The translations under genes were made by a program, and so were the position numbers. A stretch of 64,000 bases of DNA, from contig JAUNUI010000001.1 of assembly GCA_030538255.1 (NCBI GenBank), positions 173,827 through 237,826 of the forward strand, in the 5' to 3' direction. This DNA is from Pelistega sp. (lineage in GTDB: Bacteria; Pseudomonadota; Gammaproteobacteria; Burkholderiales; Burkholderiaceae_B). A model generated the notes under the pieces. The model worked only from the letters and a program-made list of their open reading frames with translations, was not told the DNA's origin and made no database searches. Of the stretch, positions 6,116-31,828 are shown piece by piece; positions within the stretch are counted from its first letter, which is position 1, and every line of letters begins with the position of its first letter.

Positions 6116-6130
6116 TTCCGCATGGCAGAA
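6116..6130. promoter_or_regulatory. candidate IclR operator upstream of the porin gene
   Basis: TTCCGCATGGCAGAA is a 15-bp near-palindrome whose half-sites TTCYGC and GCAGAA recur at 10858, 11043, 18284 and 27885 and, degenerately, at 31683 and 31814. It centres about 100 bases before the porin start. That the IclR protein encoded at 27932 binds it is inferred. Confidence 0.65.
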
Positions 6131-6226
6131 ATTAGTAGGAGTAAAGCAATGTCTTGGATTTCTCCTAAGTTTTAAAAAATTATTGCGTAATCACATACAT
6201 ACTTTTTAATATGGAGACAGTTTGTA

Positions 6227-7414
6227 ATGAAAAAAATTAGTTTGGCGGTATTGGCGGTAATGGCCCCAGCAGCTGCATTTGCCAGCTCATCAGTGACACT
6301 CTATGGTCTAGTGGATGGTGGGTATTATTACAAAAACCAGAAAACGACATTTTCCGGTGACCCAGGTGCAACGCAGGGTAGCATTGAGCAGCGCACAGTC
6401 GGTTTTCGTAATGGATTGCGCAATGGTAACCGCTGGGGCTTGAAAGGCGTCGAGGATTTAGGTAATGGAACCAGCGCTATCTATACTCTTGAAAGTGGTT
6501 TTAATTTAGGCGACGGTCAGTCATTACAAGGTGGTCGTTTGTTTGGTCGTCAAGCATTTGTCGGTTTAACTGGTGAGAGCTGGGGTACTTTCACGATTGG
6601 TCGTCAATACAATACGTCGGATGTATTTCTACAACCGATAGACCCATTCGGTCATAATGGTTGGCAGTCTTCTACGCATAGCGGTTTTAATACATCGCAT
6701 TCATATCGCTACGATAATGCAGTGAAATATGCCTCACCGAATTTATCAGGTTTTCGCTTTATTGTCGGTGGATTCTTTGAGAACACCAAAGTAGACACGG
6801 ATATTAATGGCGCTAAAGATACCGGTAAAGATCGCTTCGGTGGTTTGATGGCAGGTTTAGGCTATCGTAGCGGTCCAATTAATATTGGCGCGACGTTCGA
6901 CTATGTTGATCAGAAAACTGAGAATATGGCGGGTAAGACAGATGTCAGTACCAAAACCAAGCAATGGAATTTGGGTATGACCTACGACTTTGATGTGGCG
7001 AAACTTCATTTAATGTATGGCCATCAACGTGATGGTACCTTTTTTGGTATCGGTTTAGCGAATGATATCCTAAATCCACAAGGTGTGCGTACTTTAGCCC
7101 GTCAGATGAACAGTGATGGTTTCCGTCAACAATCTTGGTTGGCAGGCGTAACTGTACCTGTATCGCAATCAGGTCAGGTGATCTTCTCATATCAAGGCAA
7201 TTCCATTAAAAATAATGAGGCTGCAGGTTTAGAGGATGCTCGTATCAAGTCGCATATCTTTAGCTTAGGTTATGTTCATAATCTTTCTAAGCGTACAAAT
7301 ATGAATATCATTGCCTCTCACGGTACTTCAAAGTTGAAGTTTAATGATGCATTAAGTCAGCAACGTAAAGTGAAGTCGACTGATATTCAGTTAGGTTTGC
7401 AGCATCGCTTCTAA
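6227..7414 (+). CDS. general porin (Neisseria/Bordetella type)
   Basis: Outer-membrane trimeric beta-barrel channel of 395 residues. The signal peptide is residues 1-19, ending AAAFA, and the mature start SSVTLYGLVDGGYYY is the hallmark of beta-proteobacterial porins. A typical early block is NGNRWGLKGVEDLGNGTSAIYTLESGF followed by GRQAFVGL, given here in parts because it runs across about residues 70-120. The C-terminus ends LQHRF, with the terminal phenylalanine needed for Bam-dependent insertion. GGAG precedes the ATG. A palindrome of the regional regulon lies about 100 bases upstream, so this porin may serve uptake of the regulon's substrate rather than be housekeeping. Confidence 0.93.
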   Translation: MKKISLAVLAVMAPAAAFASSSVTLYGLVDGGYYYKNQKTTFSGDPGATQGSIEQRTVGFRNGLRNGNRWGLKGVEDLGNGTSAIYTLESGFNLGDGQSLQGGRLFGRQAFVGLTGESWGTFTIGRQYNTSDVFLQPIDPFGHNGWQSSTHSGFNTSHSYRYDNAVKYASPNLSGFRFIVGGFFENTKVDTDINGAKDTGKDRFGGLMAGLGYRSGPINIGATFDYVDQKTENMAGKTDVSTKTKQWNLGMTYDFDVAKLHLMYGHQRDGTFFGIGLANDILNPQGVRTLARQMNSDGFRQQSWLAGVTVPVSQSGQVIFSYQGNSIKNNEAAGLEDARIKSHIFSLGYVHNLSKRTNMNIIASHGTSKLKFNDALSQQRKVKSTDIQLGLQHRF

Positions 7415-7450
7415 ACCAAAACTATCATAACCGTAGATGATAGTGATGGG

Positions 7451-7480
7451 AACAGGCTCAGTATTGAGCCTGTTTTTTTG
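7451..7480 (+). terminator. porin terminator
   Basis: AACAGGCTCA (7451-7460) pairs perfectly with TGAGCCTGTT (7465-7474), followed by a run of T. It lies about 40 bases after the porin stop. Confidence 0.92.
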
Positions 7481-7497
7481 CGAGCTAAAGATTCGCT

Positions 7498-7596
7498 GTG
7501 CAGTGTTGCTGCAAGCTTGAGGAGCTAGAGTTGTGCAGTGTTGCTGCAAGCTTGATGAGCTAGAGCCGTGCAGTGTTGCTGCAAGCTTGAGGAGCT
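7498..7596. repeat. tandem repeat, three copies of a 35-bp unit
   Basis: GTGCAGTGTTGCTGCAAGCT begins each copy, at 7498, 7533 and 7568, giving an exact 35-bp period. The copies differ by only a few bases. The array lies between the porin terminator and the convergent acyl-CoA dehydrogenase gene. Confidence 0.92.
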
Positions 7597-7631
7597 TAAG
7601 ATATGATGGGCCAGATGTTCGGTACGCTGAG

Positions 7632-7669
7632 AGCCTCTAGGCTTAAGCACTAGGCTAAGCCTAGAGGCT
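7632..7669. terminator. perfect 14-bp inverted repeat, possible terminator of the minus-strand gene
   Basis: AGCCTCTAGGCTTA (7632-7645) pairs with TAAGCCTAGAGGCT (7656-7669). It lies 40 bases beyond the stop of the minus-strand acyl-CoA dehydrogenase. No T-run follows on either strand, so a terminator role is only likely from position. Confidence 0.5.
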
Positions 7670-7708: not shown

Positions 7709-9559
7709 TTAGTACGTCGGCCATGGTTCGCTAAGCAAGTGATTAATTTTGCGATTATTTAATTGCATGAGTTTGGTACGAGCAAGCGGCAATTCAGTAT
7801 GGAAAAACCATTGACAGGTACGTAACTTAGCTTGGTAAAAATCTACTTGCTGAGCCGAGAGAGGAGGCGATTTGCTTGAAGACTCTTCCTGGGCATTAAG
7901 TTTACTGTGCGCGACATTCGCTTGCATTAACCATAGCCATGCCATGGTATGGTGGCCAAACGCGTCAAGATAGGTAAATGAGTTGGCGCTGGCTTGGGAT
8001 ATGTCTTGTTTACCCCAGTTCGTGAGCATGTGGCTAGTTTCAATCAGTTCTGACCATGCCTCTTGGAGTGTCTTCGCTAGACTATGCAGCTCATGTGTAT
8101 CCGCTTGTGCTAAGGTCTGCTCAATGCTTGCTGTGACTCGAGAGTGTAGAAGCGTTAAAGCAGAGCCATCAGCTAAGTTCACTTTGCGTAATAATAGATC
8201 AAGGCTTTGAATCCCGTGTGTGCCTTCATGAATTGGATTTAAGCGATTATCACGGTAGAACTGTTCTACAGGGTACTCGCGGGTGTAACCATAACCGCCA
8301 TGAATTTGGATGGCTAGGCTATTGGCTTCAAGACAATACTGCGCCGGCCATGTTTTCACAATCGGTGTTAATAAAGATAGCAGCAGTGAGGCCTGTGCTT
8401 TCGCCTCATGGTCAGTTTGTGTTTTACTTTCATCAGCAAGCCAAGCGGCATATAAGCACAATAACAATGCGCCTTCAACATAAGCTTTCTGCGTCATGAG
8501 CATGCGGCGTATATCAGCGTGTTGGATAATCGGCACTTGTGATTGTGAGCTATCTTTATTATCAATCGGCCGGCCTTGTGTGCGCTCTTTCGCATAATTG
8601 ATTGAATGTAGATAGGCGGTGTAGCCAAGCATCGTTCCCCCCATACCAACACCAATCCGTGCTTCGTTCATCATATGGAACATGCAATTTAAACCTTTGC
8701 CAGCCTCACCAATCAATTCTCCATAGCATGCCTCATACTCTCCAAAGCTTAAAATGGTGGAGGTGGTTCCTCGATAGCCCATTTTGTGGATAAGGCCGCT
8801 GAGCAGCACGTCATTGCGCTCGCTTACTTGGCCGTGTGCATCAACGCGATATTTAGGAACTAAAAATAAAGACAGCCCTTTAGCGCCAGCGGGTGCGCCA
8901 GCAATGCGAGCGAGTACGAGGTGAACAATGTTTTCACTGAGATTGTGGTCGCCGGCGGAAATAAAGATTTTCTGCCCTTTGAGTAGATAAGACCCGTCAG
9001 CTTGTGGGTAGGCGGTCGTATGTAAATCGGGCACTGATGAGCCTGCATGTGGCTCAGTAATGGCCATGGTGCCAAGCCACTTGCCTTGCAGTAAATTAGG
9101 CAAATAGCGCTGCTTCTGCTGTTCACTGCCATAGGTGCGAATTAAGTTAGCATTCGCCGCGGTTAAGAAGCAGTAGGCTGAGGTGGCAATATTTGCTGAA
9201 CGAAAAAGCGCTAAGCAAGATTGTGCGACTGTAATGGGTAATTGCATCCCATCGAGTTCATAATCATGGGTCGCCGATAAAAAACCTGCTTGGGCGAAGG
9301 CCAGGATGGCTTGTTTGACCTCTTCGATGATCTGCACAGATTGACCATCAAACTTAGGCTCGTTCTCATCGGCATAGCGGTTATGCGGTAAGAATAACTC
9401 GGTGGCAATTTTTTCAGCAGTATCAATGGCGGAAATAAATGTCTCTTTCGAATGATCGCTATAGCGATCTCTTTGGGTTAGTTGTTCAATATTTAAAACA
9501 TCAAATAAGATGAACGCTAAATCATCGCGATCAATTAACGTCGAGGCAATGCTACTCAT
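7709..9559 (-). CDS. acyl-CoA dehydrogenase, large DmdC/FadE-like form
   Basis: FAD enzyme introducing the 2,3-double bond into an acyl-CoA. The 616 residues exceed the usual 380, matching the long subfamily that includes methylmercaptopropionyl-CoA dehydrogenase, with an extra C-terminal domain. The middle domain shows MAITEPHAGSSVPDL and GYRGTTSTILSFG. The catalytic glutamate is present in the canonical setting YRDNRLNPIHEGTHGIQ. I start at the ATG at 9559 (MSSIAST), preceded by AAGGA; the frame stays open to 9616 but that upstream ATG has no ribosome site. It lies 71 bases downstream of the Bug/TctC gene, likely in one operon. The acyl substrate is unknown. Confidence 0.9.
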   Translation of the reverse strand: MSSIASTLIDRDDLAFILFDVLNIEQLTQRDRYSDHSKETFISAIDTAEKIATELFLPHNRYADENEPKFDGQSVQIIEEVKQAILAFAQAGFLSATHDYELDGMQLPITVAQSCLALFRSANIATSAYCFLTAANANLIRTYGSEQQKQRYLPNLLQGKWLGTMAITEPHAGSSVPDLHTTAYPQADGSYLLKGQKIFISAGDHNLSENIVHLVLARIAGAPAGAKGLSLFLVPKYRVDAHGQVSERNDVLLSGLIHKMGYRGTTSTILSFGEYEACYGELIGEAGKGLNCMFHMMNEARIGVGMGGTMLGYTAYLHSINYAKERTQGRPIDNKDSSQSQVPIIQHADIRRMLMTQKAYVEGALLLCLYAAWLADESKTQTDHEAKAQASLLLSLLTPIVKTWPAQYCLEANSLAIQIHGGYGYTREYPVEQFYRDNRLNPIHEGTHGIQSLDLLLRKVNLADGSALTLLHSRVTASIEQTLAQADTHELHSLAKTLQEAWSELIETSHMLTNWGKQDISQASANSFTYLDAFGHHTMAWLWLMQANVAHSKLNAQEESSSKSPPLSAQQVDFYQAKLRTCQWFFHTELPLARTKLMQLNNRKINHLLSEPWPTY

Positions 9560-9630
9560 TGTCTGTCCTTGTCTGCGTTGAACTCCTCCATACCTAAGAG
9601 GCGAAGAGGAGTTCATTCATTATGTATAAA

Positions 9631-10608
9631 TTATTTTTTACTAAAACCAATGGATTCTAATATGGCTGATTCTTGCTCGGCCATTTTCTTGGCGAATTCG
9701 CTGTATTCTGAAGAACTCATATAATAGGGTTCCATATCATAGCGCTCTAAAGCCTCGCGGTAATTGTCTTTTTCCATTGCCAGCTTTAATGCGTCGTGCA
9801 ATTTTTTGACAATATCACTATCAGTGCCTTTAACAACAGCCAGGCCGAAAGGTGATAATTGCTTAATATTGATGCCTGACTCAATGAGTGTCGGGACCTC
9901 AGGAAAGCGCTTGGAACGTTGCTCTCCCCAGGTAGAGAGAAGGCGTAATTTACCGTTATCAACATACTGAGCCCAAGCCGGGGTGTCAGCTACTGACATA
10001 ACAAATCCGGCTAGTGCGGCTTGCATCGACTCTGCATTGCCTTTGTAAGGGACGTGAACTAATTCGATACCCGCCTCACGCGCAATTTGCTCCATGGTGA
10101 TATGCAATGAAGTCATAGCGCCAGGGGTACCATAGGTTAAGGTATTGGGGTTTTGCTTGGCGTAGGCAATATAGTCTTGCATATTCTTAATCGGCGAGTC
10201 TGCTGGGACGATGAGACCGAATGAATAACCCGCTAGATTAATCACATAGTCCAAACCCGTCACTGGGTCCCAATCCGTTTTATTGATATAGGGTAGACGG
10301 AAAATAGTGGCAGGTGTTTGGATTAGGGTATAGCCATCGGCCTTGCCATTGCGCGCTTGGAGGGCAGGTAGGATTCCACCAGCGCCGGGTTTATTCTCAA
10401 CGATAACCGGTGTTTTTAATATCTCTGAGAGGTTCTCGGCCAAGATGCGAAACGGCATGTCTGTTGAGCCGCCTGCCGTATAGCCAATGACAATTCGAAT
10501 CGGTTGCTTAGGGAATTCTTCTGCCTCTTTAGAGAGCGCGTGCACTTGTGTCGCTGCAACAGTCAGCAGCCCAAAGCTTAAGAGTGCTTGGCTAAAAAAT
10601 TTTCTCAT
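9631..10608 (-). CDS. Bug/TctC-family tripartite tricarboxylate transporter binding protein
   Basis: Periplasmic solute-binding protein of the Bug family, greatly expanded in Bordetella relatives and binding carboxylates or amides. Residues 1-24 form a Sec signal peptide; then comes FPKQPIRIVIGYTAGGSTD, the family signature, followed by VIVENKPGAGGILPA. The ATG at 10608 follows GAGG at about eight bases; the ATG five codons earlier does not. No TctA or TctB membrane gene is nearby, so it is an orphan binding protein. Its position ahead of an acyl-CoA dehydrogenase suggests its ligand feeds that enzyme. The gap to livH carries two candidate IclR operators. Confidence 0.9.
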   Translation of the reverse strand: MRKFFSQALLSFGLLTVAATQVHALSKEAEEFPKQPIRIVIGYTAGGSTDMPFRILAENLSEILKTPVIVENKPGAGGILPALQARNGKADGYTLIQTPATIFRLPYINKTDWDPVTGLDYVINLAGYSFGLIVPADSPIKNMQDYIAYAKQNPNTLTYGTPGAMTSLHITMEQIAREAGIELVHVPYKGNAESMQAALAGFVMSVADTPAWAQYVDNGKLRLLSTWGEQRSKRFPEVPTLIESGINIKQLSPFGLAVVKGTDSDIVKKLHDALKLAMEKDNYREALERYDMEPYYMSSSEYSEFAKKMAEQESAILESIGFSKK

Positions 10609-10857
10609 AGGATATAACCTCATAATAAAAATTCAAAATTAAAACAAAATTCCTGTGTAAACGTATTCTTTCAAGCTGTTCTTCATACTTCGCTTCAAAG
10701 CCGCTGAATGATTATGCCTTGCGATTATTCAAGCTATTTGTAAGGCGTCGATTCAACTTCAGCTGTGCAATTAAGCCTAACGTTAATTCATATGTAATCT
10801 TTCAAACTATTTGTGCTGCACTGAGGGGTAATGATGATGAAGTACATTTTTACATTG

Positions 10858-10872
10858 TACCGCATAGCAGAA
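10858..10872. promoter_or_regulatory. candidate IclR operator, tctC side
   Basis: TACCGCATAGCAGAA differs from the regional consensus in one base of one half-site. It lies in the 557-base divergent gap between the tctC-like gene and livH, 250 bases from the tctC start. I see no other gene in that gap. Confidence 0.6.
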
Positions 10873-11042: not shown

Positions 11043-11057
11043 TTCCGCATAGCAGAA
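11043..11057. promoter_or_regulatory. candidate IclR operator upstream of the Liv operon
   Basis: TTCCGCATAGCAGAA matches the consensus in every position. It lies about 110 bases upstream of the livH start and would control the transporter operon. Confidence 0.68.
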
Positions 11058-11165: not shown

Positions 11166-12029
11166 ATGGAAATTTTTGTGCAACAACTTCTTAATGGTCT
11201 AACCTTAGGAAGTGTGTACAGTCTAGTAGCACTAGGGCTTACTTTGGTATATGGAATCCTTCATGTGCCGAACTTTGCACATGGTGCTTTCTATATGATG
11301 GGGGGCTTTGTTGCCTTTCATTTGATGACTAAGGTCGGCTTGGGATATTGGTGGGCGATGGGCGGTGCCGCTATTGTTGTGGCCATATTGTCTATGCTCG
11401 CTGAGCTTCTTGTGTTTAAGCCCTTGAGCAAAGCGCCACCATTACACGACATGATTGCCGCCATTGGCATTATGCTTTTCCTTGAGGCTGCTGCTCAACT
11501 TATTTGGGGCGCCGACTTCCAAAGAATGCCAACACCGTACGACAGTATGGTGAATGTTATGGGTATTACGATTTCAGCACAGCGCCTTTTAATTATTGTC
11601 GGTGCATTTGTCCTCGTTACTTTATTGCATCTATTCCTCAACAAAACGATTATCGGCTCGACCATTATTGCTATGGCCCAGAACAAAGAGGGTGCGGCCT
11701 TAGTCGGTATTGATCCAATCCGTGTTACTTACTTGGTATTCGCAGTAGCAGGTATTTTGGCTGCTGTGGCCGCGGTTTTATATGCACCGATTAATCTTGT
11801 CTATCCAGCTATGGGTCAGCTTGTCATCACTAAAGCATTCGTGATTATTGTGATGGGTGGTATGGGAAGCTTTGCCGGTGCGATTGTTGGCGGCATGATT
11901 GTCGGTTTTGCCGAGAGCCTAGGGGGCTACTATATTTCACCTGACTATAAAGACATCATTGCTTTTTTAATGCTTGTTCTGGTTCTATCCATTCGTCCAG
12001 AAGGCTTATTCTCTAAGGGGGCGCGATAA
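11166..12029 (+). CDS. livH: branched-chain amino acid-type ABC permease, LivH subunit
   Basis: Inner-membrane permease of 287 residues with about eight hydrophobic segments. The start MEIFVQQLLNGLTLGSVYSL and the following ALGLTLVYGILHVPNFAHG are the LivH signature. The C-terminal FVIIVMGGMGSFAGAIVGG loop contacts the ATPase. A GGAG stands before the ATG. It begins a five-gene set, livH-M-G-F plus binding protein, with touching or overlapping genes. In catabolic settings such transporters often carry aromatic or short-chain carboxylic acids rather than amino acids. Confidence 0.95.
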   Translation: MEIFVQQLLNGLTLGSVYSLVALGLTLVYGILHVPNFAHGAFYMMGGFVAFHLMTKVGLGYWWAMGGAAIVVAILSMLAELLVFKPLSKAPPLHDMIAAIGIMLFLEAAAQLIWGADFQRMPTPYDSMVNVMGITISAQRLLIIVGAFVLVTLLHLFLNKTIIGSTIIAMAQNKEGAALVGIDPIRVTYLVFAVAGILAAVAAVLYAPINLVYPAMGQLVITKAFVIIVMGGMGSFAGAIVGGMIVGFAESLGGYYISPDYKDIIAFLMLVLVLSIRPEGLFSKGAR

Positions 12030-13025
12030 ATGAATCAGAAATCTCTACACTGGGGATGGTTAGTCGCACTGGCGATAGCCCTTGTTTTCCCATTTGTTTC
12101 AACGAATGAATATTATTTATCAGTGGCTACCTTGGCGCTCATTTATGCCATATCTGCTTTAGGTTTAAACCTATTGACGGGTTATACCGGCCAATTTAAT
12201 TTGGCGCATGGTGGCTTTATGGCTATTGGTGCGTATGCTGTTGGCATCTTAACAGTGGATTACGAGTGGTCATTCTGGGCGGCTTTTATCGTCGCTATAT
12301 TGGTGACGATGTTGATTGGTTTTTTTGTTGGCTTAGTGTCGCTGCGTCTAAAAAGCCATTTCTTCTCCATCTTCACCTTATGCGTGGGCTACATCATTTT
12401 CTTATTGATTGAAAAATGGGAATGGCTAACCCAAGGCGTCGTCGGCATCATGAATGTACCGGTGCCTGAACTGGGTGGCTTAGTCGATTTTGAAGAGCCA
12501 AGAGCGCAATATTACTTAGTCGTATTTTTCTTGGCGCTGGGCCTATGGCTGATGAATCGAATTGTTCGTTCAATTGTAGGGCGCAGTTTTGTAGCGGTGA
12601 GAAATAGTGAGCCGCTGGCCCAAGCCTTAGGCATTAACTTAATGCGTACGAAGATTTTATCCTTCGTAATTTCAGTGGCGTATGCAGGTGCTGCTGGTGC
12701 CTTATATGCAGGTTATGTGCGTTTCTTAGGGCCCGATATGGCCTATGTAACACATACCTTTACCGTGGTTATGTTTGTCTTAGTGGGCGGTATTGGTACC
12801 TTAGCGGGTCCAGTGATCGGTGCCTTATTAGTATCATCGCTAACGCAGTCTTTACAGTTTCTCGAAGACTATCGCATGCTAATTTTCGGCCCCTTATTAA
12901 TCATCATCTTGATTTTTATTCCAGCTGGGATAGTGGGCGTGTGGAGAAAGTTTAAGGCAAAAAGGATGATCGCTGCTAAGCAAAAGGCGGCCGCAGCAAA
13001 GGGAGGTAGCTATGCTTCAAATTAA
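12030..13025 (+). CDS. livM: branched-chain amino acid-type ABC permease, LivM subunit
   Basis: Second permease subunit, 331 residues, highly hydrophobic. The segment SALGLNLLTGYTGQFNLAHG and the C-terminal FVLVGGIGTLAGPVIGALL identify LivM. It starts directly after the livH stop and its 3' end overlaps livG by 14 bases, so translation is coupled. A basic tail rich in lysine and alanine ends the protein. Confidence 0.95.
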   Translation: MNQKSLHWGWLVALAIALVFPFVSTNEYYLSVATLALIYAISALGLNLLTGYTGQFNLAHGGFMAIGAYAVGILTVDYEWSFWAAFIVAILVTMLIGFFVGLVSLRLKSHFFSIFTLCVGYIIFLLIEKWEWLTQGVVGIMNVPVPELGGLVDFEEPRAQYYLVVFFLALGLWLMNRIVRSIVGRSFVAVRNSEPLAQALGINLMRTKILSFVISVAYAGAAGALYAGYVRFLGPDMAYVTHTFTVVMFVLVGGIGTLAGPVIGALLVSSLTQSLQFLEDYRMLIFGPLLIIILIFIPAGIVGVWRKFKAKRMIAAKQKAAAAKGGSYASN

Positions 13026-13776
13026 AAACCTAACTAAAAAATTTGGTGGACTAACTGCCGTCAATGATGTCTCAGTGGATATCGAGAAAGGTAGTATCAC
13101 AGCGATTATTGGTCCTAATGGTGCAGGCAAAACGACCTTCTTTAATCTGGTCAGCGGTGCTATTAAACCAAGCTCAGGTCAAGTCCTTTTGAATGGCGCA
13201 GAGATGGCTGGCTTACGTGCCGACCAAGTAGCACGCCATGGTGTGGCACGTACCTTCCAGACAACCCACTTATTTGAACAAGCGACCGTCTTAGATAACT
13301 TAATTGTTGGCCACCGTTTGCGCACAGAGTCAGGTTTCTGGGATGTGCTCATTAACTCACCTCGCTTAAAACGCGAAGAGAAAATATGCCGTGAAAAGGC
13401 AGAGCAGGCCTTAGATTTTGTCGGGCTTTCAGCCTTGGCGAATGTGTTGGCCTCTGATATCTCGCAAGAAGCGAAAAAGCGAGTGGCCTTCGCTTTGGCC
13501 TTAACGACCGACCCGCAGATCTTATTGCTTGACGAACCTGCCGGTGGGGTTAATCCTGAAGAGACGGTCGGACTGGCTAGTTTAATTCGTAAGCTAGTTG
13601 AACATGGCAAAACGGTGTGTTTAGTAGAACATAAGATGGACATGATCATGAGCTTAGCAGACAAGATTTTGGTACTTCATCACGGCCAAAAACTCGCTGA
13701 AGGTACACCTACAGAGATTCAACAAAATACACAAGTGATTGAGGCATATCTAGGAGTTGAGCATGTTGAAGCTTGA
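13012..13776 (+). CDS. livG: ABC transporter ATPase, LivG subunit
   Basis: Cytoplasmic ATPase of 254 residues. Walker A is GPNGAGKTT (about residues 36-44) and Walker B is ILLLDEPAGG. The family insert GLRADQVARHGVARTFQTTHLF is typical of LivG. The signature region reads DISQEAKKRVAFALAL, so the usual LSGGQ is altered to ISQEA, although LSYGQQR-like variants are normal in this subunit. GGGAGG precedes the ATG within the livM end. Confidence 0.95.
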   Translation: MLQIKNLTKKFGGLTAVNDVSVDIEKGSITAIIGPNGAGKTTFFNLVSGAIKPSSGQVLLNGAEMAGLRADQVARHGVARTFQTTHLFEQATVLDNLIVGHRLRTESGFWDVLINSPRLKREEKICREKAEQALDFVGLSALANVLASDISQEAKKRVAFALALTTDPQILLLDEPAGGVNPEETVGLASLIRKLVEHGKTVCLVEHKMDMIMSLADKILVLHHGQKLAEGTPTEIQQNTQVIEAYLGVEHVEA

Positions 13777-14470
13777 TAAGGTTGATTTATATTACGGGGC
13801 ATTTAAAGCTTTAAATGAAGTATCCATTCAGGCGAATCAAGGTGAATTGATTGTTTTATTGGGTGCGAATGGCGCTGGCAAAAGCTCTCTATTTCTAGCG
13901 ATTAGCGGAATCCATAAAATCGCTGGTGGAAGTGTTGAATATGCAGGTCAGAGCATCGGTAATAGCCGTCCGGCAAAAATTGTTCGCTCTGGCCTTGTTC
14001 ATTGCCCTGAAGGTCGTAAATTATTTCCAGCCATGAGTGTCTATAAGAATCTGATGCTTGGTGGATTTACGCGTCGCGGTGATCGTAAGGGTATCAATGA
14101 GAGTATTGAAGAGGTTTTCGAGCTTTTCCCAATTCTTAAAGAAAAGCAACACGAAATGGCGGGTTCCTTATCTGGAGGTCAGCAGCAGATGGTGGCGATT
14201 GGCCGTGCCTTGGTAGGGCGTCCTAAAGTACTTTTATTAGATGAGCCTTCGCTTGGCTTAGCACCGCTTGTCGTAAAACAAATGTTCGATGTTATTAAGC
14301 GCATTAATGAAGAAGGCACGACGATTCTTTTGGCTGAACAAAATGCTTACTCAGCTTTGCAGATCTGTGATCGTGCTTACGTCATGGAGCGAGGTAACGT
14401 TATTCTTGAAGGTAATAAAGAATCTCTATTAAGTAATCCTGAAGTGCGTAAGGCATATTTGGGTGCCTAA
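13763..14470 (+). CDS. livF: ABC transporter ATPase, LivF subunit
   Basis: Second ATPase, 235 residues. Walker A is GANGAGKSS, the signature is SLSGGQQQMVAIGRAL and Walker B is VLLLDEPSLGLAP, all intact. The ATG at 13763 follows AGGAG by six bases and overlaps the end of livG by 14 bases; the frame also contains a TTG two codons earlier with poorer spacing. ATP hydrolysis by the LivG-LivF pair drives import. Confidence 0.95.
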   Translation: MLKLDKVDLYYGAFKALNEVSIQANQGELIVLLGANGAGKSSLFLAISGIHKIAGGSVEYAGQSIGNSRPAKIVRSGLVHCPEGRKLFPAMSVYKNLMLGGFTRRGDRKGINESIEEVFELFPILKEKQHEMAGSLSGGQQQMVAIGRALVGRPKVLLLDEPSLGLAPLVVKQMFDVIKRINEEGTTILLAEQNAYSALQICDRAYVMERGNVILEGNKESLLSNPEVRKAYLGA

Positions 14471-14526
14471 TAAACAAGCTTTAATTATTCTATTTTCTGT
14501 CAATTCATCTATAGGAGACAATGATA

Positions 14527-16978: not shown

Positions 16979-17707
16979 TCAAGATTCATCAAGAATGTTT
17001 TTGATCTCACCTTGCTGTAGTTGCGGCACAATGTCGTAGATGTTTTTTTGCGCGATAAAATCCAGTTCGTGATTTAAGTTTTTGCTCAGCAGTCGACGGC
17101 CAACGCGAGAGAGGCGAAAACAATCGATGGCATCAATTGATTGTGAATAGTGTAATGCCGCTAGCGCAGCATCGCTTAGCTCGAACTCCTGGTAGGGTAA
17201 TAATGAAATTAAATAGCCCGCACCATAAAAATCTTCCATATTAAAGCGACCACCAGAGCCAGAACAAATGAATAAGATAGTCCGCTGTGGATGTTGTTGT
17301 TGAACATGATTCAACACCGCTTGTGCATTGAGTAAAGAGACCGCATAAACAGCATGTGCTGTTTGGCTATGCCTCAGAGCAATCGTGCCATTGGTTGTGG
17401 CGTAAATAAGTGTTTGCTTATCACCAATAGATTGCTGAATACTGAGAGGGGTGGCTGAGCTAAAACCGTGTAAGGTTTCTGCATTAAATTCACCCGCAAG
17501 TAAATAATCCTGCTGTGTACGTGCTTGTGCAATCTGCAATGCATGTTCACCATTGAGGGCCGGAATAACGCGCTCAATTTGGTGTGCTAAAGCCGTGGTA
17601 ATACTGGATGTCGCACAAAGAATGTCTAACACAAGCGCCACTTTATCACTAAGCAGTTCAGGCTTAATATCTTCTTTTCTTAAAATAACATGAAGCTTTG
17701 TTTTCAC
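16979..17707 (-). CDS. ComB-family 2-phosphosulfolactate phosphatase-like protein
   Basis: Protein of 242 residues recognised as ComB-like from the region AGEFNAETLHGFSSATPLSI and the motif YATTNGTIALRHS, followed by CSGSGGRFNMEDFYGAG. In methanogens ComB dephosphorylates 2-phospho-3-sulfolactate for coenzyme M synthesis; no other step of that pathway is visible here, so the true substrate is probably another phosphorylated hydroxy acid. The start is GTG at 17707, overlapping the upstream thioesterase stop as GTGA, so the two are translationally coupled. A phosphatase beside a kinase-containing catabolic cluster is notable. Confidence 0.8.
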   Translation of the reverse strand: MKTKLHVILRKEDIKPELLSDKVALVLDILCATSSITTALAHQIERVIPALNGEHALQIAQARTQQDYLLAGEFNAETLHGFSSATPLSIQQSIGDKQTLIYATTNGTIALRHSQTAHAVYAVSLLNAQAVLNHVQQQHPQRTILFICSGSGGRFNMEDFYGAGYLISLLPYQEFELSDAALAALHYSQSIDAIDCFRLSRVGRRLLSKNLNHELDFIAQKNIYDIVPQLQQGEIKNILDES

Positions 17708-18283: not shown

Positions 18284-18298
18284 TTCTGCATTGCAGAA
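18284..18298. promoter_or_regulatory. candidate IclR operator, perfect palindrome
   Basis: TTCTGCATTGCAGAA is a perfect 7-1-7 palindrome, the most symmetrical of the set. It stands 68 bases from the thioesterase start and about 280 bases from the thiolase start. Confidence 0.7.
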
Positions 18299-22965: not shown

Positions 22966-24606
22966 ATGAATACATTACATTTTGCACATTGGCCAAAAGG
23001 TCTAGCCAAAACACTAACCGTACCGCAAACAACTTTGCAGACCAATCTAGAAATTACCGCCTTGCGTTACCCAGATAAAGCGGCTTTGATTTTTTACGAC
23101 ACAATCATTACCTATCGAGAGCTTCTACACGAAGTAGAACTAATGGCAGGCTTCTTGCAACAAGATTGTGGTATTAAAAAGGGTGATCGTGTCTTGCTGT
23201 TCACCCAGAATAGTCCGCAATTTGTGATTGCATATTATGCGATTATTCGTGCTGATGCGATTGTTGTGCCCGTGAATCCGATGAATAAAGCAGATGAGTT
23301 ACAGCATTATGTGGATGATACAGGTGCCGATACGATAATCGTTACTCAGGAGTTGTATGGCAATATTCAAAAACTCAATCACCCTAATTTGCAACATATT
23401 ATTTTAGCTTGCTATGGTGATTACTTAAAGTCTGAAACAAGTCTGAATGTACCTCCTTTTGTTAAGGATGAGCGCTTAGTGGTGTCGAATCCGAAAGTCC
23501 ATCCGTGGCTCAAGGCACTTGAATTAAACCGTCAGGTAGCCCCTTCGCAAGCGACCCCAGATGATGTGTGTGTTATGCCCTATACGTCTGGCACCACAGG
23601 ACATCCTAAGGGTTGTATGCATACCCATAAAACTGTTATGTATAACACCATATCAAGTGCCAACTGGTACTTGTCAACAAGTCAAGATGCGGTATATCTG
23701 GCGGCGTTACCCTTATTCCACGTGACTGGCATGCAAGGCAATATGAATACGCCCATCTATCTTGGTGGCACCAGTGTTTTACTAACGCGTTGGGATCGCG
23801 AAGTGGCAATTCAGTCGATTGAGCGCTATAAAGTGAGCCGCTTAGCGATGATTGCTGCGATGGTGGTTGACTTCATATCCTCACCAAACTTGTTGAAACA
23901 TGACCTCTCTAGTGTTTCACGCATTAGTGGTGGCGGTGCTGCTATGCCTGAGGCTGTCGCGGAGAAGTTACATCAATTATTTGGTATTAATTATATTGAA
24001 GGCTACGGCATGTCAGAGCTGATTGCGCCTTCACATATTAATCCTGAACATCGTCCTAAGAAACAATGCTTAGGTGTGCCTATCTTTGATGTGGATGCTC
24101 GTATTATTGACATCGAAACCTTAAAAGAATTGCCCCAAGGCGAGGTCGGTGAAATTATTGTTCATGGTCCACAAGTGATGAAAGGTTATTGGAACGATGC
24201 GGCGGCCACTGAAGAGGTCTTTATTGAGCTTGATGGTAAGCAGTTTTTACGCACAGGTGACATTGGTCGTATCGATGAAGACGGTTACTTCTTTATGGTA
24301 GACCGACTAAAGCGGATGATTAATGCTTCGGGCTACAAAGTGTGGCCAGTGGAAGTGGAGTCCCTGATGTATAAGAACCCAGTGATTCAAGAAGCTTGTG
24401 TCATTGGTGTACAAGATCCAAAACGCGGCGAGACCGTTAAGGCGGTGGTTGTGTTGAAAGAAGGCTTGCAAGAGAAAATTACTGAGCAGGACATTATGGC
24501 TTGGTGTAAAGAGCATATGGCAGCATATAAAGTGCCTCAAATCGTTGAGTTTATTGAGGCATTGCCTAAGACCGCTTCGGGCAAGATTCGTTGGCGTGAG
24601 CTTTAA
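22966..24606 (+). CDS. AMP-forming acyl-CoA ligase
   Basis: Adenylate-forming enzyme of 546 residues that activates a carboxylic acid with ATP and CoA. Motifs: MPYTSGTTGHPKGCMHTH (ATP loop, near residue 205), GYGMSE, RTGDIGRIDEDGYFF, the hinge DRLKRMINASGYKVWPVEVE and the catalytic lysine in KTASGKIRWREL at the very end. It resembles the medium- and long-chain fatty acid ligases and PimA-type enzymes. It is the last gene of the thiolase operon, followed by a terminator. It likely makes the CoA thioester entering the pathway. Confidence 0.92.
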   Translation: MNTLHFAHWPKGLAKTLTVPQTTLQTNLEITALRYPDKAALIFYDTIITYRELLHEVELMAGFLQQDCGIKKGDRVLLFTQNSPQFVIAYYAIIRADAIVVPVNPMNKADELQHYVDDTGADTIIVTQELYGNIQKLNHPNLQHIILACYGDYLKSETSLNVPPFVKDERLVVSNPKVHPWLKALELNRQVAPSQATPDDVCVMPYTSGTTGHPKGCMHTHKTVMYNTISSANWYLSTSQDAVYLAALPLFHVTGMQGNMNTPIYLGGTSVLLTRWDREVAIQSIERYKVSRLAMIAAMVVDFISSPNLLKHDLSSVSRISGGGAAMPEAVAEKLHQLFGINYIEGYGMSELIAPSHINPEHRPKKQCLGVPIFDVDARIIDIETLKELPQGEVGEIIVHGPQVMKGYWNDAAATEEVFIELDGKQFLRTGDIGRIDEDGYFFMVDRLKRMINASGYKVWPVEVESLMYKNPVIQEACVIGVQDPKRGETVKAVVVLKEGLQEKITEQDIMAWCKEHMAAYKVPQIVEFIEALPKTASGKIRWREL

Positions 24607-25801: not shown

Positions 25802-26542
25802 TTACTTCGTCAAGAATTTAGCAAAAGCCGCCTGTGCTTGGGGCGACTGTAGGCATTGCACAAACGACTCCCGTTCAACCTTAAAGGTTTCCTCAATAAT
25901 TGGCGCCATATGACGCTTCAACAGTTGTTTGGTGGTTTTAAGGGAAAGCAGAGACTGTTGTGCCATTTCATTAGCCAGTTCTTGCGCGGTGCTTAAGGCT
26001 TGTCCAGCAGGTGATACGGCGCTAATAAAACCCTTTTCCTGCGCTTCTTTAGCGGTGAAGGGTTTGCCACGATATAACCATTCATTGGCTGTACGAATGC
26101 CAACATATTGCGCCATAAGCACACTGGATGCTCCTTCAGGACAGAGCCCTAGTGGTACGAATGGAATTTGAAAAAAGACATTGTCTGAGGCATATACAAA
26201 GTCGCAATGCATAAGCATAGTGACACCAATACCGACAGCCCCCCCTTCAACCGCGGCGATAATAGGAATCTCTACTTTATGTAGGCTTTCTAAAAAAGTA
26301 ATCCCAGGACTGGTGGCGCCAGGGGTCTTTTGGAAGTCACGTAGATCATTGCCTGCGGTAAAATAATTCTCAGCGCCAGTGAGAATGACCGCGTGTAGAT
26401 CATCACGGCCATGCGTGCTATCCAAGGCCTGTGCCAGTGCCTCATAGGTTTCAAAGTCTAAGGCATTACGGGCTTGTGGTCGGTTGATAGTGAGCGTTAG
26501 AACCTTATTGTTTTCTTCAACGAGAACTTTTTGATTATTCAT
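25802..26542 (-). CDS. enoyl-CoA hydratase/isomerase-family protein
   Basis: Crotonase-fold enzyme of 246 residues. The oxyanion-hole segments are TAGNDLRDF (about residue 66) and AVEGGAVGIGVTMLMHCDFV; the catalytic-acid region is IPFVPLGLCPEGASSVLM, where glutamate follows the GLCPE motif. The ATG at 26542 overlaps the upstream oxygenase stop as TAATG, so translation is coupled. It could hydrate or isomerise an enoyl-CoA of the regulon's pathway. Confidence 0.9.
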   Translation of the reverse strand: MNNQKVLVEENNKVLTLTINRPQARNALDFETYEALAQALDSTHGRDDLHAVILTGAENYFTAGNDLRDFQKTPGATSPGITFLESLHKVEIPIIAAVEGGAVGIGVTMLMHCDFVYASDNVFFQIPFVPLGLCPEGASSVLMAQYVGIRTANEWLYRGKPFTAKEAQEKGFISAVSPAGQALSTAQELANEMAQQSLLSLKTTKQLLKRHMAPIIEETFKVERESFVQCLQSPQAQAAFAKFLTK

Positions 26543-27507
26543 TAGAGTTGCCCCTGGATACGTAGACGCGCTTGCGCATATTCCTCTTGCATGGTGGCGA
26601 CAATTTGTGCCGTACTTTCAATGGAGTCAATTGTGCCAACACCTTGGCCTGCACCCCAGATATCTTTCCATGGTTTAACACGGGTAGAGCCAAAGTTAGT
26701 GCCGACCATTTCTTCTTTTTTAAGATTCTCTGGATCAAGACCTGCGTTAATAATACTTGGGGTTAAATAGTTTCCTGGGATACCGGTAAAAAAGGGCGTA
26801 TAGAGAACATCCTTGGCTGCTGAATCAACAATCATCTGCTTATAACGTTGATCTGCATTGGCTTCAGTGCTCGCAATAAAGCGCGTGCCAATATAGGCGA
26901 AATCGGCACCCATAGCACGTGCAGCGAGAATGCCATCGCCGGTTGTGATTGAACCAGATAGAGCGATAGGCCCCTTAAAAATTCGACGCACCTCAGAGAG
27001 TAGGGCAAAAGGACTTAAGGTGCCGGCATGACCACCGGCACCAGCGGCCACCAGAATTAAACCGTCTACGCCAGCTTCAATTGCCTTCTCAGCGTGACGC
27101 AAAGTGGTCACATCATGAAAGACTACACCGCCCCACTTATGAGTTTGCTGTACCACCTCATTCGGCGCCCGCAAGCTCGTAATAATCATCGGTACTTTAT
27201 GCTTTTCGCACATCGCCATATCGTGGTCTAAGCGATCGTTAGAGGCGTGAATAATTTGATTGATGGCGTAGGGGGCGGTTTTTCGCGTAGGTTCTTGTTG
27301 ACGAGCATTGCTCAAGGTTTCGTTAATTTCTGCTAGCCAGTCATCCAATAACTCGGCAGGACGCGCATTGAGTGCAGGCATCGAGCCGATAACACCGCTT
27401 TTGCATTGTTCAATAACTAATTTAGGGCTAGATACGATAAACATCGGTGAGCAGATAACGGGGAGGCTCATCTGTTCGTATAACTGAGTAACGATGGGGT
27501 GGGTCAT
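26542..27507 (-). CDS. nitronate monooxygenase-family FMN enzyme
   Basis: TIM-barrel flavoprotein of the 2-nitropropane dioxygenase (NMO) family, 321 residues. Typical elements are LPVICSPMFIVSSPKLVIEQ, LVAAGAGGHAG (FMN phosphate loop), and ALSGSITTGDGILAARAMGADFAYIGTRF. Members called NMO often act as quinone or enoyl reductases, so nitronate oxidation is not certain; coupling to an enoyl-CoA hydratase suggests a role in acid breakdown. The promoter region upstream also serves the IclR gene in the opposite direction, 424 bases away. Confidence 0.88.
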   Translation of the reverse strand: MTHPIVTQLYEQMSLPVICSPMFIVSSPKLVIEQCKSGVIGSMPALNARPAELLDDWLAEINETLSNARQQEPTRKTAPYAINQIIHASNDRLDHDMAMCEKHKVPMIITSLRAPNEVVQQTHKWGGVVFHDVTTLRHAEKAIEAGVDGLILVAAGAGGHAGTLSPFALLSEVRRIFKGPIALSGSITTGDGILAARAMGADFAYIGTRFIASTEANADQRYKQMIVDSAAKDVLYTPFFTGIPGNYLTPSIINAGLDPENLKKEEMVGTNFGSTRVKPWKDIWGAGQGVGTIDSIESTAQIVATMQEEYAQARLRIQGQL

Positions 27508-27884: not shown

Positions 27885-27899
27885 TTCTGCATGGTAGAA
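27885..27899. promoter_or_regulatory. candidate IclR autoregulatory operator
   Basis: TTCTGCATGGTAGAA matches the regional palindrome with one change, and lies 32 bases upstream of the iclR-type start. This position fits autoregulation. The remaining 424-base gap back to the oxygenase gene contains no other feature I can support. Confidence 0.62.
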
Positions 27900-27931: not shown

Positions 27932-28786
27932 ATGGCATACGGTACTAAATCTTCCACGACCACCTCGAACGTCACGCAGCCGAAGAGCCTATCACTCATT
28001 GATAAATATAAGGATGATCGTCACTTCGTCACTGCGTTAGCGCGTGGCTTAGAGGTGCTTGCCTGTTTTCGTTCTGGTAATCGTGTTTTGGGTAATCAAG
28101 AGATTGCCAAGCGTTGTAATCTTTCTAATTCAACGGTTTCACGCTTAACCTCAACCTTGGTCAAGATGGGTTACTTAATGCATGATGCGCCGACGGGTAA
28201 GTACCGCTTAGGGATGGCAACCTTATCTTTGGGTATGGGGATGTTAGCCAAGTTAGATGTACGACAAATTGCCCGTCCTTACCTGCAAGAAATTGCTGAC
28301 TTTTCTCAAGGTGTTGTAAGTTTAGGTGTGCGAGATCGCTTATCTATGCTGTGCATTGAAACCTGTCGTAGTCGTTCGGCCTTGACCTTGCAACTCGATG
28401 TAGGCACGCGCTTGCCAATAACGACTTCGTCAATGGGACGGGCCTATTTAGCGGAAGCTGGTCAAGAGGAGCTAGATGAGGTGTTTGAGCGTGTGAGTGA
28501 GCTTGACGAGCGCTCAAGTCATCTTATTATGCAGGGTATTGAACAGGCCCTGAAAGATTATCGTGAGTTAGGTTGCACGTGCTCATTTGGTGAGTGGCAA
28601 GGTGATGTGAATGGGATTGCGGTTGGTTTAAATTTAGGCGGGAATTTTCCGATTATGTCGATTAACTGTGGTGGCCCATCGTTTAACTTATCACCCGAAT
28701 TTTTATTGGATGAGGTGCGACCACGCCTATTAGCCATGACACAGAAGCTGAAAGAATCATTCGGCCTCACCGATTTTAATTATTAA
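27932..28786 (+). CDS. IclR-family transcriptional regulator
   Basis: Regulator of 284 residues. The N-terminal 25 residues are polar; the winged helix-turn-helix covers about residues 30-95 (TALARGLEVLACF, NQEIAKRCNLSNSTVSRLTSTL). The effector domain follows, with SLGVRDRLSMLCIET and LPITTSSMGRAYLAE typical of IclR proteins. Family members bind palindromes of about 15 bp and respond to small acids. The operator-like sites near six promoters here make it the likely master regulator of the 6-34 kb region; whether it represses or activates cannot be seen. Confidence 0.93.
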   Translation: MAYGTKSSTTTSNVTQPKSLSLIDKYKDDRHFVTALARGLEVLACFRSGNRVLGNQEIAKRCNLSNSTVSRLTSTLVKMGYLMHDAPTGKYRLGMATLSLGMGMLAKLDVRQIARPYLQEIADFSQGVVSLGVRDRLSMLCIETCRSRSALTLQLDVGTRLPITTSSMGRAYLAEAGQEELDEVFERVSELDERSSHLIMQGIEQALKDYRELGCTCSFGEWQGDVNGIAVGLNLGGNFPIMSINCGGPSFNLSPEFLLDEVRPRLLAMTQKLKESFGLTDFNY

Positions 28787-30214: not shown

Positions 30215-30240
30215 TTAAGGGCTCCACAATGTTAGTTTTT

Positions 30241-30256
30241 TACTCTGCCATGAGTA
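30241..30256. promoter_or_regulatory. palindrome TACTC-N6-GAGTA upstream of the PimD-like gene
   Basis: TACTCTGCCATGAGTA is symmetrical and contains CTCTGCCA, which recurs inverted as TGGCAGAG at 30317. It resembles the operator half-site but not the whole consensus. It lies 27 bases from the PimD-like start. Confidence 0.3.
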
Positions 30257-30416
30257 GCGGTGTATAAGCGAAAATTAAGTGCTTTTTTACAATCGCATTG
30301 GTTTGTGTTGGTGTATGGCAGAGTTAAATTTGTTTAATCGATCTTTAAAATAAATTGTCCGTAGTAATCAAAGGCTGTGTATAAATTTAATCTATAAAGC
30401 CTCGGCCATTACTGAT

Positions 30417-31613
30417 TTATAGGCCAAGAATCATGCGGCAGATAATGCCTTTTTGGACCTCACTTGAACCACCATAAATAGTGGTTTTACGTACGTTAAA
30501 GTTATAGCCAGTTAAGTGTTCAAATTCATTCGGGAAAGCGCTACTAATTGCCTCGTGCGCTTCGTTGTGTAGCAAATGCGCTACGCCATAAGGGCCCAAT
30601 GCATGCGATGCTAATTCCGCAATAGTCTGTTGAATTTCTGAACCCTTGACCTTCAGAATCGATGCTTCTGGTCCCGGAGTATGTTGTTTGCCATCGCTAG
30701 AGACGAGTTTTAAGTTGGTGATTTCAAGTGCCATCAGCTCAAGCTCAACCGCCGCAATACGATCACGAAAACGCGTATCTTCAAGCAATGATTTGCCATG
30801 ATTGCCAGGGCGTTGAGCCGCCATATCCTTAACCCGAGCCAACGCCGCTTTCGAACGGCCTACACGGGCAATATTGGTGCGCTCATGGCCAAGTAAATAT
30901 TTGGCATACGTCCAACCCTTATTCTCTTCACCCACTAAATTAGCAACAGGAACGCGGACATTCTCAAACCAGACTTCATTAATCTCATGACCATCATCCA
31001 ACATAATGATGGGACGGACAGTGATACCTGGGGTGTTCATATCAATCAGCAAGAAAGAGATGCCTTCTTGTTTACGTACACTTGGGTCAGTACGAACTAA
31101 ACAGAAAATCCAATTGGCATATTGACCCAGTGTGGTCCAGGTTTTTTGGCCGTTAACCACATAATGATCACCTTCACGTACCGCAGTTGTTTTGAGCGAA
31201 GCAAGGTCAGAACCTGCACCTGGCTCAGAGTAACCCTGACACCACCAATCCTCACCAGAAATAATGCGTGGCAAGAAATAGTCTTTCTGGGCTTGTGAAG
31301 CATACTTCTGAATCACAGGCGCAACCATTTTCACGCCGAAGGCCAGTTGTTCAGGAGCGCCAAAGCGAGCGCATTCTTCTTCAAAAATATGGCGTTGGAC
31401 AGCATCCCAGCCTGTGCCACCGTATTCAACAGGCCACGAGGGGGCACCCCAACCTTGTTGGTATAGCGCTTTCTGCCATTGAATACGCTCTTCTTTACTT
31501 AGCGGTTCATAGTTGAAAGTCTTCTGGCGAACTTCGGCAGATACGTTGTTTTCTAAGAATTGTCGAACCTCATCGCGAAAAGCGAGTTGTTCTGGCGTCA
31601 GCGTCAAATCCAT
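30417..31613 (-). CDS. acyl-CoA dehydrogenase, PimC-like large subunit
   Basis: Acyl-CoA dehydrogenase of 398 residues with the FAD-contacting segments QGYSEPGAGSDLASLKTTA and NGQKTWTTLGQYANWIFCL. The C-terminal turn is TIYGGSSEVQKGII, with GGS in place of EGT, the form found in PimC, FadE26 and similar large subunits. With the downstream PimD-like gene it probably makes one alpha2-beta2 enzyme. The ATG at 31613 follows AGGA by seven bases; the frame is open 37 codons further but that stretch covers the promoter and an operator. It is divergent from the PimF-like gene. Confidence 0.9.
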   Translation of the reverse strand: MDLTLTPEQLAFRDEVRQFLENNVSAEVRQKTFNYEPLSKEERIQWQKALYQQGWGAPSWPVEYGGTGWDAVQRHIFEEECARFGAPEQLAFGVKMVAPVIQKYASQAQKDYFLPRIISGEDWWCQGYSEPGAGSDLASLKTTAVREGDHYVVNGQKTWTTLGQYANWIFCLVRTDPSVRKQEGISFLLIDMNTPGITVRPIIMLDDGHEINEVWFENVRVPVANLVGEENKGWTYAKYLLGHERTNIARVGRSKAALARVKDMAAQRPGNHGKSLLEDTRFRDRIAAVELELMALEITNLKLVSSDGKQHTPGPEASILKVKGSEIQQTIAELASHALGPYGVAHLLHNEAHEAISSAFPNEFEHLTGYNFNVRKTTIYGGSSEVQKGIICRMILGL

Positions 31614-31682
31614 GAGGGTTTCCTTTACATAATGTTTATCTTGATGTTCTACTCTGAATCTTCCTTGATTCTGCATTATTAA

Positions 31683-31697
31683 TTCCGCATTATGGAA
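31683..31697. promoter_or_regulatory. operator-like palindrome, PimC side of the divergent promoter
   Basis: TTCCGCATTATGGAA keeps TTCCGCAT and the final GGAA of the consensus. It lies 70 bases upstream of the PimC-like start. Confidence 0.5.
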
Positions 31698-31813
31698 CTT
31701 AATAATAAATAATGGAATTATCATAATTCATTAATTATCCTAGGTCAATTAGGGATATAGCTTTTTTTCATTGTTTTTTTTAAAGAGTTTAAGGTATTAT
31801 ATAGATAATTTAT

Positions 31814-31828
31814 TTCTGCAGAGTGGAA
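31814..31828. promoter_or_regulatory. operator-like palindrome, PimF side of the divergent promoter
   Basis: TTCTGCAGAGTGGAA keeps TTCTGCA and GGAA. It is 35 bases upstream of the PimF-like start and 131 bases from the site at 31683, so paired binding is possible. Confidence 0.5.

What the first reader, a model, noticed from the sequence alone, without database searches (positions are those of the whole stretch)
6116..31828. A 15-bp palindrome ties six promoters into one IclR-controlled catabolic regulon
TTCYGCATNGCAGAA occurs at 6116, 10858, 11043, 18284 and 27885, with weaker copies at 6008, 18407, 31683 and 31814. Every copy listed is intergenic and upstream of a gene: porin, Bug/TctC, livH, thioesterase/thiolase, the IclR gene itself, and the divergent PimC/PimF-like genes. 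Only one IclR gene is present, 32 bases from one copy. The co-regulation of a porin, a Bug protein, an ABC importer and a complete beta-oxidation set suggests an undescribed acid-degradation regulon.
Basis: partly seen in the sequence, partly recalled or inferred. Interest (0 to 1): 0.78.

Follow-up and report, generated by a model that had tools for sequence, protein, structure and literature searches.

The report
IclR operator regulon for acid breakdown
A short palindrome repeated in front of most operons of a bacterial acid-eating gene cluster is very probably the docking site of a switch protein encoded there, and one of these operons carries bacterial versions of the two halves of the mammalian enzyme that breaks down 4-hydroxy fatty acids.

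Summary
Each of the nine palindrome copies outranks every non-site position of the 64-kb window in a leave-one-out matrix scan, and all five places of the 2.95-Mb genome within one mismatch of the consensus lie in this cluster. The IclR assignment is strongly supported by comparison, unproven by binding: 19 of 26 family genomes with a close IclR homologue carry a perfect palindrome, against 15 of 242 others; the reversed control pattern occurs in 0 of 26 and 10 of 242. Eighty named loci hold 32 perfect places; 39 of 40 shuffled palindromes gave 0-1, and the fortieth was nearly the real motif.

Corrections: a second IclR (71%) with its own pimF-like gene and operator lies on another contig, so 'one IclR' is true of the window only. 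The PimC/PimD-like proteins miss the equivalog cut-offs. The central operon encodes a split ACAD10/11-type pair, a 4-hydroxyacyl-CoA kinase and a phosphate-eliminating dehydrogenase, beside an SDR, a ligase and a thiolase. Likeliest function: a repressor-controlled regulon for 4-hydroxy/4-oxo carboxylic acids. Known kind of system, new regulon.

The parts
6008..6022 (-). weak operator copy, porin promoter region
6116..6130 (+). operator copy upstream of porin gene
6227..7414 (+). Gram-negative porin (Porin_4)
   Evidence: PF13609 E 2.4e-45
7709..9616 (-). acyl-CoA dehydrogenase, 635 aa
   Evidence: NCBIfam matches below equivalog cut-offs
9631..10623 (-). Bug/TctC periplasmic binding protein
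   Evidence: PF03401 E 1.8e-96
10858..10872 (+). operator copy, Bug side of the divergent Bug/livH region
   Evidence: a copy at the like place in G223
11043..11057 (+). operator copy, livH side
   Evidence: a copy at the like place in G223
11166..15708 (+). LIV-type ABC importer: livH, livM, two ATPases (livG, livF), substrate-binding protein
   Evidence: searches (livH, livM, binding protein; ATPases), synteny in G223
15712..16698 (+). quinone oxidoreductase-like (PIG3-like) gene
   Evidence: TIGR02824 E 2.3e-72, below cut-off
16979..17707 (-). 2-phosphosulfolactate phosphatase-like gene
   Evidence: NF002055 E 5.4e-45, below cut-off
17704..18216 (-). hotdog thioesterase
   Evidence: TIGR00369 43.9 bits, cut-off 36.6
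18284..18298 (+). fully palindromic operator, thioesterase side
   Evidence: 7 of 7 pairs
18407..18421 (+). operator copy, thiolase side
18572..19750 (+). acetyl-CoA C-acyltransferase (thiolase)
   Evidence: NF005494 708.1 bits, cut-off 615
19784..20557 (+). SDR oxidoreductase, candidate 4-oxoacyl-CoA reductase (role inferred)
   Evidence: NF006070 380.7 bits, cut-off 279
20571..21632 (+). APH-fold kinase, like the 4-hydroxyacyl-CoA kinase domain of ACAD11
   Evidence: 8v3v E 2.6e-86, 3dxp E 1.8e-132; HGD at residues 212-214
21712..22932 (+). ACAD10/11-type dehydrogenase (4-phosphoacyl-CoA elimination, inferred)
   Evidence: 8v3u E 1.3e-144; [12 protein letters not shown] at 260-271, DGPDEVH at 387
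22966..24606 (+). fatty acid CoA ligase
   Evidence: NF006181 861.8 bits, cut-off 705
25802..26542 (-). enoyl-CoA hydratase family gene (no operator seen at its own promoter)
26542..27507 (-). nitronate monooxygenase family gene; in some relatives a site lies near its start
   Evidence: PF03060 E 5.8e-23
27885..27899 (+). operator copy upstream of iclR
27932..28786 (+). IclR-family regulator
   Evidence: PF09339 and PF01614 above gathering score
29069..30214 (-). PimD-like acyl-CoA dehydrogenase
   Evidence: TIGR03203 354.8 bits, cut-off 652.7
30417..31613 (-). PimC-like acyl-CoA dehydrogenase (start placed at Met 38 of the ORF)
   Evidence: TIGR03204 497.8 bits, cut-off 623.85
31683..31697 (+). 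operator copy, pimC side
31814..31828 (+). operator copy, pimF side
31857..33959 (+). PimF-like enoyl-CoA hydratase/3-hydroxyacyl-CoA dehydrogenase
   Evidence: PF00378, PF02737, PF00725

Best explanation
The 15-bp palindrome (symmetrised consensus TTCYGCANTGCRGAA) is the operator of the IclR-family protein encoded at 27932-28786. The protein most likely acts as a repressor (a mixed role is possible) that, on sensing a substrate or CoA-ester intermediate, releases the porin, Bug protein, LIV-type importer and beta-oxidation operons as one local regulon, and controls its own gene. The most specific enzymes point to catabolism of 4-hydroxy and/or 4-oxo carboxylic acids: CoA ligase; SDR reduction of a 4-oxo group if present; phosphorylation of the 4-hydroxyl by the APH kinase; phosphate elimination to the 2-enoyl-CoA by the ACAD10/11-type dehydrogenase; hydration and oxidation by the PimF-like protein; thiolysis. 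Shown by computation: the sites, their rarity elsewhere in the genome, their conservation and statistical link to IclR, and the homology and motif residues of the enzymes. Inferred: binding, sign of regulation, effector, substrate and the role of each enzyme.
For: Sites: each of nine beats all non-site positions in leave-one-out scoring; five of five 0-1 mismatch places of the genome lie in the cluster. Link to IclR: 19 of 26 family genomes with a close IclR homologue (best E 9.6e-80 or lower) have a perfect palindrome, 15 of 242 others do; Fisher P 1.4e-14, relatedness not corrected; reversed-pattern control 0 of 26 and 10 of 242. Within the genus, IclR (E <= 1e-40) and kinase (E <= 1e-90) match in 2 of 7 genomes (G000, G223), and the perfect palindrome occurs in the same 2 and in 0 of the other 5; at one mismatch two of those 5 have one match each. 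In 80 named loci: 32 perfect, 42 one-mismatch and 54 two-mismatch places in 1.36 Mb, in 65 of 80 loci (27 with a perfect one); of 40 shuffled-half-site palindromes 39 have 0-1 perfect places. Position: within -400 to +60 of the aligned start in 18 of 22 pimF, 11 of 14 acyl-CoA dehydrogenase (635-aa type), 2 of 2 livH, 15 of 34 pimC, 26 of 78 iclR, but 0 of 23 pimD, 0 of 18 ACAD2, 0 of 15 thiolase, 0 of 9 QOR. Of the 12 named loci counted as holding the kinase, 10 have a site of up to 2 mismatches in front of the pimF, SDR or kinase gene that heads the same-strand run with the kinase (read by hand; that each run is one operon was not tested). Enzymes; 18 of 18 ACAD2 homologues at 60% or more keep R....R.HHCMR. 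Papers: PMC12440821 (passages) ties R626, H634, R637 and D753 of ACAD11 to activity on 4-phosphoacyl-CoA; PMC11342911 (passages) reports that bacterial kinase and dehydrogenase homologues replace the ACAD10 domains.
Against: No binding or expression data. 15 of 80 named loci have no site at up to 2 mismatches, only 37 of 80 have an intergenic one by a crude ORF call, and iclR itself has one in 26 of 78. Perfect palindromes also sit beside more distant IclR genes (33-34% identity, L180-L182), so the motif may not be specific to this protein. The kinase is near IclR in 12 of 80 loci and ACAD2 in 18 of 80, and of 88 family genomes with a kinase at E <= 1e-90 only 6 have a close IclR homologue: the 4-hydroxy module is accessory to the IclR regulon at large. 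The SDR was not compared with LvaD. Promoter matches are mostly near chance level, and at livH the operator lies upstream of the best promoter match, which does not fit simple repression there.
Confidence: 0.7

Rival explanations
1. The palindrome is the IclR operator, but the regulon serves dicarboxylic or ordinary fatty acids, and the kinase/dehydrogenase pair only handles hydroxylated side products.
For: PimC- and PimF-like genes are commoner neighbours of IclR than the kinase: pimC 34 of 80, pimF 22 of 80, kinase 12 of 80. Bug, porin and importer fit an anionic acid.
Against: PimC and PimD miss the equivalog cut-offs (497.8 vs 623.85 and 354.8 vs 652.7 bits) and the ligase scores 276.6 vs 705.6 for PimA. 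The kinase and dehydrogenase sit inside a motif-headed gene run here and in G223.
Confidence: 0.3
2. Two paralogous IclR proteins (window and contig C2, 71% identical) share the palindrome, so the regulon is jointly or competitively controlled. (Compatible with the best explanation.)
For: Paralogue G000:C2:81467-82267 with a pimF paralogue (79%) and a 2-mismatch site in front of it; relatives G203, G204 and G226 also have two or more close copies.
Against: One site is seen at the C2 stretch examined; effector and DNA specificity were not tested.
Confidence: 0.45
3. The palindrome belongs to another transcription factor and its link with IclR is coincidence of neighbourhood.
For: No binding data; 15 of 242 genomes without a close IclR homologue also have a perfect palindrome.
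Against: Co-occurrence P 1.4e-14 (uncorrected for kinship); sites in front of 26 of 78 iclR genes; a symmetric 15-bp site suits a dimeric winged-helix regulator (general knowledge).
Confidence: 0.06
4. Paired operators act by DNA looping of an IclR tetramer.
For: 27 pairs spaced 79-184 bp in the named loci, plus four in the window.
Against: No helical phasing: best resultant 0.245, P about 0.15 over seven periods tried. One operator per divergent promoter explains the pairs more simply.
Confidence: 0.1

Closest known systems
lva operon of Pseudomonas putida (levulinic acid; from passages of PMC12440821 and PMC11342911; the gene order and LvaB/LvaD roles are recalled)
   Same: an LvaA-kind kinase, an LvaC-kind dehydrogenase and a CoA ligase together, with an SDR
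   Different: no LvaB noticed here (not searched for); IclR operator, where an abstract names the regulator LvaR; thiolase in the operon; importer, porin and PimCDF-like genes in the regulon
ACAD10/ACAD11 of mammals
   Same: kinase and dehydrogenase domains homologous (8v3u/8v3v); HCMR motif, upstream Arg and both catalytic Asp positions kept
   Different: two separate bacterial proteins instead of one chain
pim operon (pimeloyl-CoA degradation; operon recalled, proteins by NCBIfam models)
   Same: PimC- and PimD-like dehydrogenases; a fused hydratase/dehydrogenase like PimF
   Different: PimC, PimD and PimA scores below equivalog cut-offs
IclR-family catabolic regulators of the PcaR/PcaU/PobR subfamily
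   Same: same protein family (TIGR02431 122.7 bits)
   Different: below that subfamily's cut-off of 284.75 bits; operators not compared by a call

Membership tests
IclR family regulator | HTH_IclR and IclR_C domains above gathering score | tested here: met
   PF09339 56.7 bits (cut-off 22), PF01614 70.7 bits (cut-off 24)
IclR family regulator | binds the palindrome and responds to an effector | not testable with these tools
   only comparative evidence
PcaR/PcaU/PobR subfamily | TIGR02431 cut-off | tested here: not met
   122.7 vs 284.75 bits
ACAD10/11-type (LvaA/LvaC) 4-hydroxyacyl-CoA pathway | kinase homologous to the ACAD11 kinase domain with catalytic Asp | tested here: met
   8v3v E 2.6e-86; HGD aligned with the HGD of ACAD11, whose Asp is changed to Ala in 8v3u
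ACAD10/11-type (LvaA/LvaC) 4-hydroxyacyl-CoA pathway | dehydrogenase with HCMR motif, upstream Arg and catalytic Asp | tested here: met
   [12 protein letters not shown] at 260-271, Asp 387; chain numbering of the aligned mouse residues is one below the paper's for the Asp; HCMR absent from the three other window acyl-CoA dehydrogenases tested
ACAD10/11-type (LvaA/LvaC) 4-hydroxyacyl-CoA pathway | activity on 4-hydroxyacyl-CoA | not testable with these tools
   no assay
lva operon | LvaB and LvaD orthologues | not tested
   LvaB and LvaD sequences were not at hand; an SDR is present
Pim pimeloyl-CoA pathway | PimC, PimD, PimA equivalog cut-offs | tested here: not met
   497.8/623.85, 354.8/652.7, 276.6/705.6 bits

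The most novel reading that the evidence does not exclude
An undescribed, widespread betaproteobacterial IclR regulon in which one palindrome couples outer-membrane, periplasmic and ABC uptake to a split ACAD10/11 pathway for 4-hydroxy/4-oxo acids, shared by two paralogous IclR repressors that sense different acyl-CoA intermediates.
Probability: 0.25. Interest if true: 0.6.

Novelty: new member of a known kind. Interest (0 to 1): 0.42.

Why it matters
It gives a defined operator, regulator and gene set that can be tested directly, and offers a likely natural sensor and uptake system for 4-hydroxy or 4-oxo acids. It also says which operons around this group of IclR genes to examine across Betaproteobacteria.

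Tried and rejected
Helical phasing of paired sites (DNA looping): not supported. Promoter scan to fix repressor or activator geometry: counts near shuffle level in most of the five regions (7 vs 2.8, 4 vs 2.0, 2 vs 1.7, 1 vs 1.6, 0 vs 3.1), so only a weak hint. Matches elsewhere in the genome at 2 mismatches: total near control level, not counted as sites except the C2 one, which lies in front of a pimF paralogue. Window places 41182 and 63428 were not taken as sites: they score 8.5 and 11.2 against 17.5 or more for the nine. Plain pimelate reading: cut-offs not met. Literature: no held paper contains any of six exact 15-letter forms; searches on IclR with pimeloyl-CoA, TTCTGCA, betaproteobacterial regulons, 4-hydroxy fatty acid/lactone, levulinate/LvaA and acyl-CoA operators listed no paper that I recognised, from titles and abstract starts, as describing this regulon; one search listed none at all. 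PMC12543098 (abstract, outline and passages) reports an IclR regulator with a glutarate phenotype that its authors take to be PcaR. PMC11683335: passages, nothing on this regulon. Mended after a recheck: the palindromes sit in five intergenic regions, not six; ABC ATPases were checked.
Full report
What was checked. The window is part of contig C7 of an unnamed 2.95-Mb genome in 47 contigs. Some contigs of its family's genomes have the same lengths as named Advenella, Candidimonas, Verticiella and Bordetella records; Advenella and Verticiella belong to Alcaligenaceae, so the source is probably an Alcaligenaceae-type betaproteobacterium, genus not named. The raw window count at up to 3 mismatches is not striking (21 against 14.8 expected), but the copies are: in leave-one-out matrix scoring each beats every non-site position in the window (the nine had been chosen for likeness), and the five places within one mismatch in the whole genome are all here.

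Comparison. The IclR protein has close homologues (best E 9.6e-80 or lower) in 26 of 268 family genomes (read). A perfect symmetric palindrome TTCYGCANTGCRGAA occurs in 19 of those 26 and in 15 of the other 242 (P 1.4e-14, kinship not corrected), while the reversed pattern occurs in 0 of 26 and 10 of 242. The looser one-mismatch search is noisy: 237 of 268 genomes have a match. Of 40 shuffled palindromes 39 had 0-1 perfect places, and the one exception (26) differs from the real motif only by exchange of two half-site letters.

Places lie within -400 to +60 of the aligned start of pimF (18 of 22), the 635-aa acyl-CoA dehydrogenase (11 of 14), livH (2 of 2), pimC (15 of 34), SDR (5 of 13), iclR (26 of 78), NMO (3 of 11), kinase (2 of 12), comB (1 of 6), FadD (1 of 16) and livF (1 of 15), and of none of 23 pimD, 18 ACAD2, 15 thiolase, 9 QOR, 6 livSBP, 4 Bug, 4 livG, 3 ECH, 3 hotdog and 3 livM. 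Hits under 40% identity, under half length or without 350 bp upstream were dropped; divergent genes can share a site; only the best site per gene was credited, which leaves 63 of 128 places uncredited. Sixteen loci with uncredited good places were examined: seven carry mutually related acyl-CoA ligases, four of them with a 3-hydroxyacyl-CoA dehydrogenase-like gene on the other side (two of the four dehydrogenases and two ligases scanned), so this IclR group also seems to serve other acid clusters.

The same-genus relative G223 keeps most of the cluster, with palindromes between the Bug-side region and livH and before the thioesterase/thiolase pair. The five other genomes of the genus had no match to the IclR (E <= 1e-40) or to the kinase (E <= 1e-90), which fits gain or loss as a unit. 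No porin or 635-aa dehydrogenase match was reported in the 40 kb of G223 examined, so these parts of the regulon rest on the window, or for the dehydrogenase on more distant relatives (G204, G093).

What the regulon does. The APH-like protein at 20571-21632 matches the kinase domain of ACAD11 (E 2.6e-86) and a solved bacterial protein labelled putative, 3dxp (E 1.8e-132); the dehydrogenase at 21712-22932 matches the ACAD11 dehydrogenase domain (E 1.3e-144). The residues that PMC12440821 (passages) ties to 4-phosphoacyl-CoA chemistry are present: HCMR, the upstream arginine and the catalytic aspartate; the three other window acyl-CoA dehydrogenases tested lack HCMR. PMC11342911 (passages) reports that bacterial homologues of the two parts can replace the ACAD10 domains. 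With the SDR, ligase and thiolase of the same gene run, this resembles the lva operon. Against over-reading: the kinase is near IclR in 12 of 80 loci, and of 88 of 268 family genomes with such a kinase (E <= 1e-90) only 6 have the close IclR. The 4-hydroxy module is thus an add-on to a beta-oxidation regulon.

Regulation. The best promoter-like matches put the operator at or after the -10 element for Bug, thioesterase, thiolase, iclR and pimC, well downstream for pimF, but upstream of the promoter for livH; none was found for the porin (several candidates per region, counts mostly near shuffle level). In the named loci the pimF operator centre is 23-94 bases before the aligned start in 15 of 18. 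Repression is the likelier sign; this is inference. A second IclR (71%) with a pimF paralogue (79%) and a 2-mismatch operator lies on contig C2, so two regulators may share the motif. A more distant IclR (33-34%) in three genomes also has the perfect palindrome beside its gene. Paired sites show no helical phasing.

Verdict. It is an ordinary kind of system with a new, well-supported operator and a testable substrate prediction.

Noticed in passing
L060 (G000:C2:66000-83902), 9393-17707: Second locus with IclR paralogue, pimF paralogue, thiolase, thioesterase-like and acyl-CoA dehydrogenase genes, with one operator-like site at 14525.
   Followed up: partly
L180, L181, L182: A distant IclR gene (33-34% identity) lies beside a perfect palindrome in three genomes of another genus; the operator may be shared more widely among IclR proteins.
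   Followed up: partly
16979-17707: 2-phosphosulfolactate phosphatase-like gene next to a thioesterase inside the cluster; role unexplained.
   Followed up: no
62469-63401: DUF1016/YhcG PDDEXK nuclease gene near the contig end, with weak palindrome-like matches at 63244, 63428 and 63623.
   Followed up: partly
L089, L095, L097, L104, L120, L123: Paired palindromes beside an acyl-CoA ligase, in four of these loci divergent from a 3-hydroxyacyl-CoA dehydrogenase-like gene: a different acid cluster with the same operator.
   Followed up: partly
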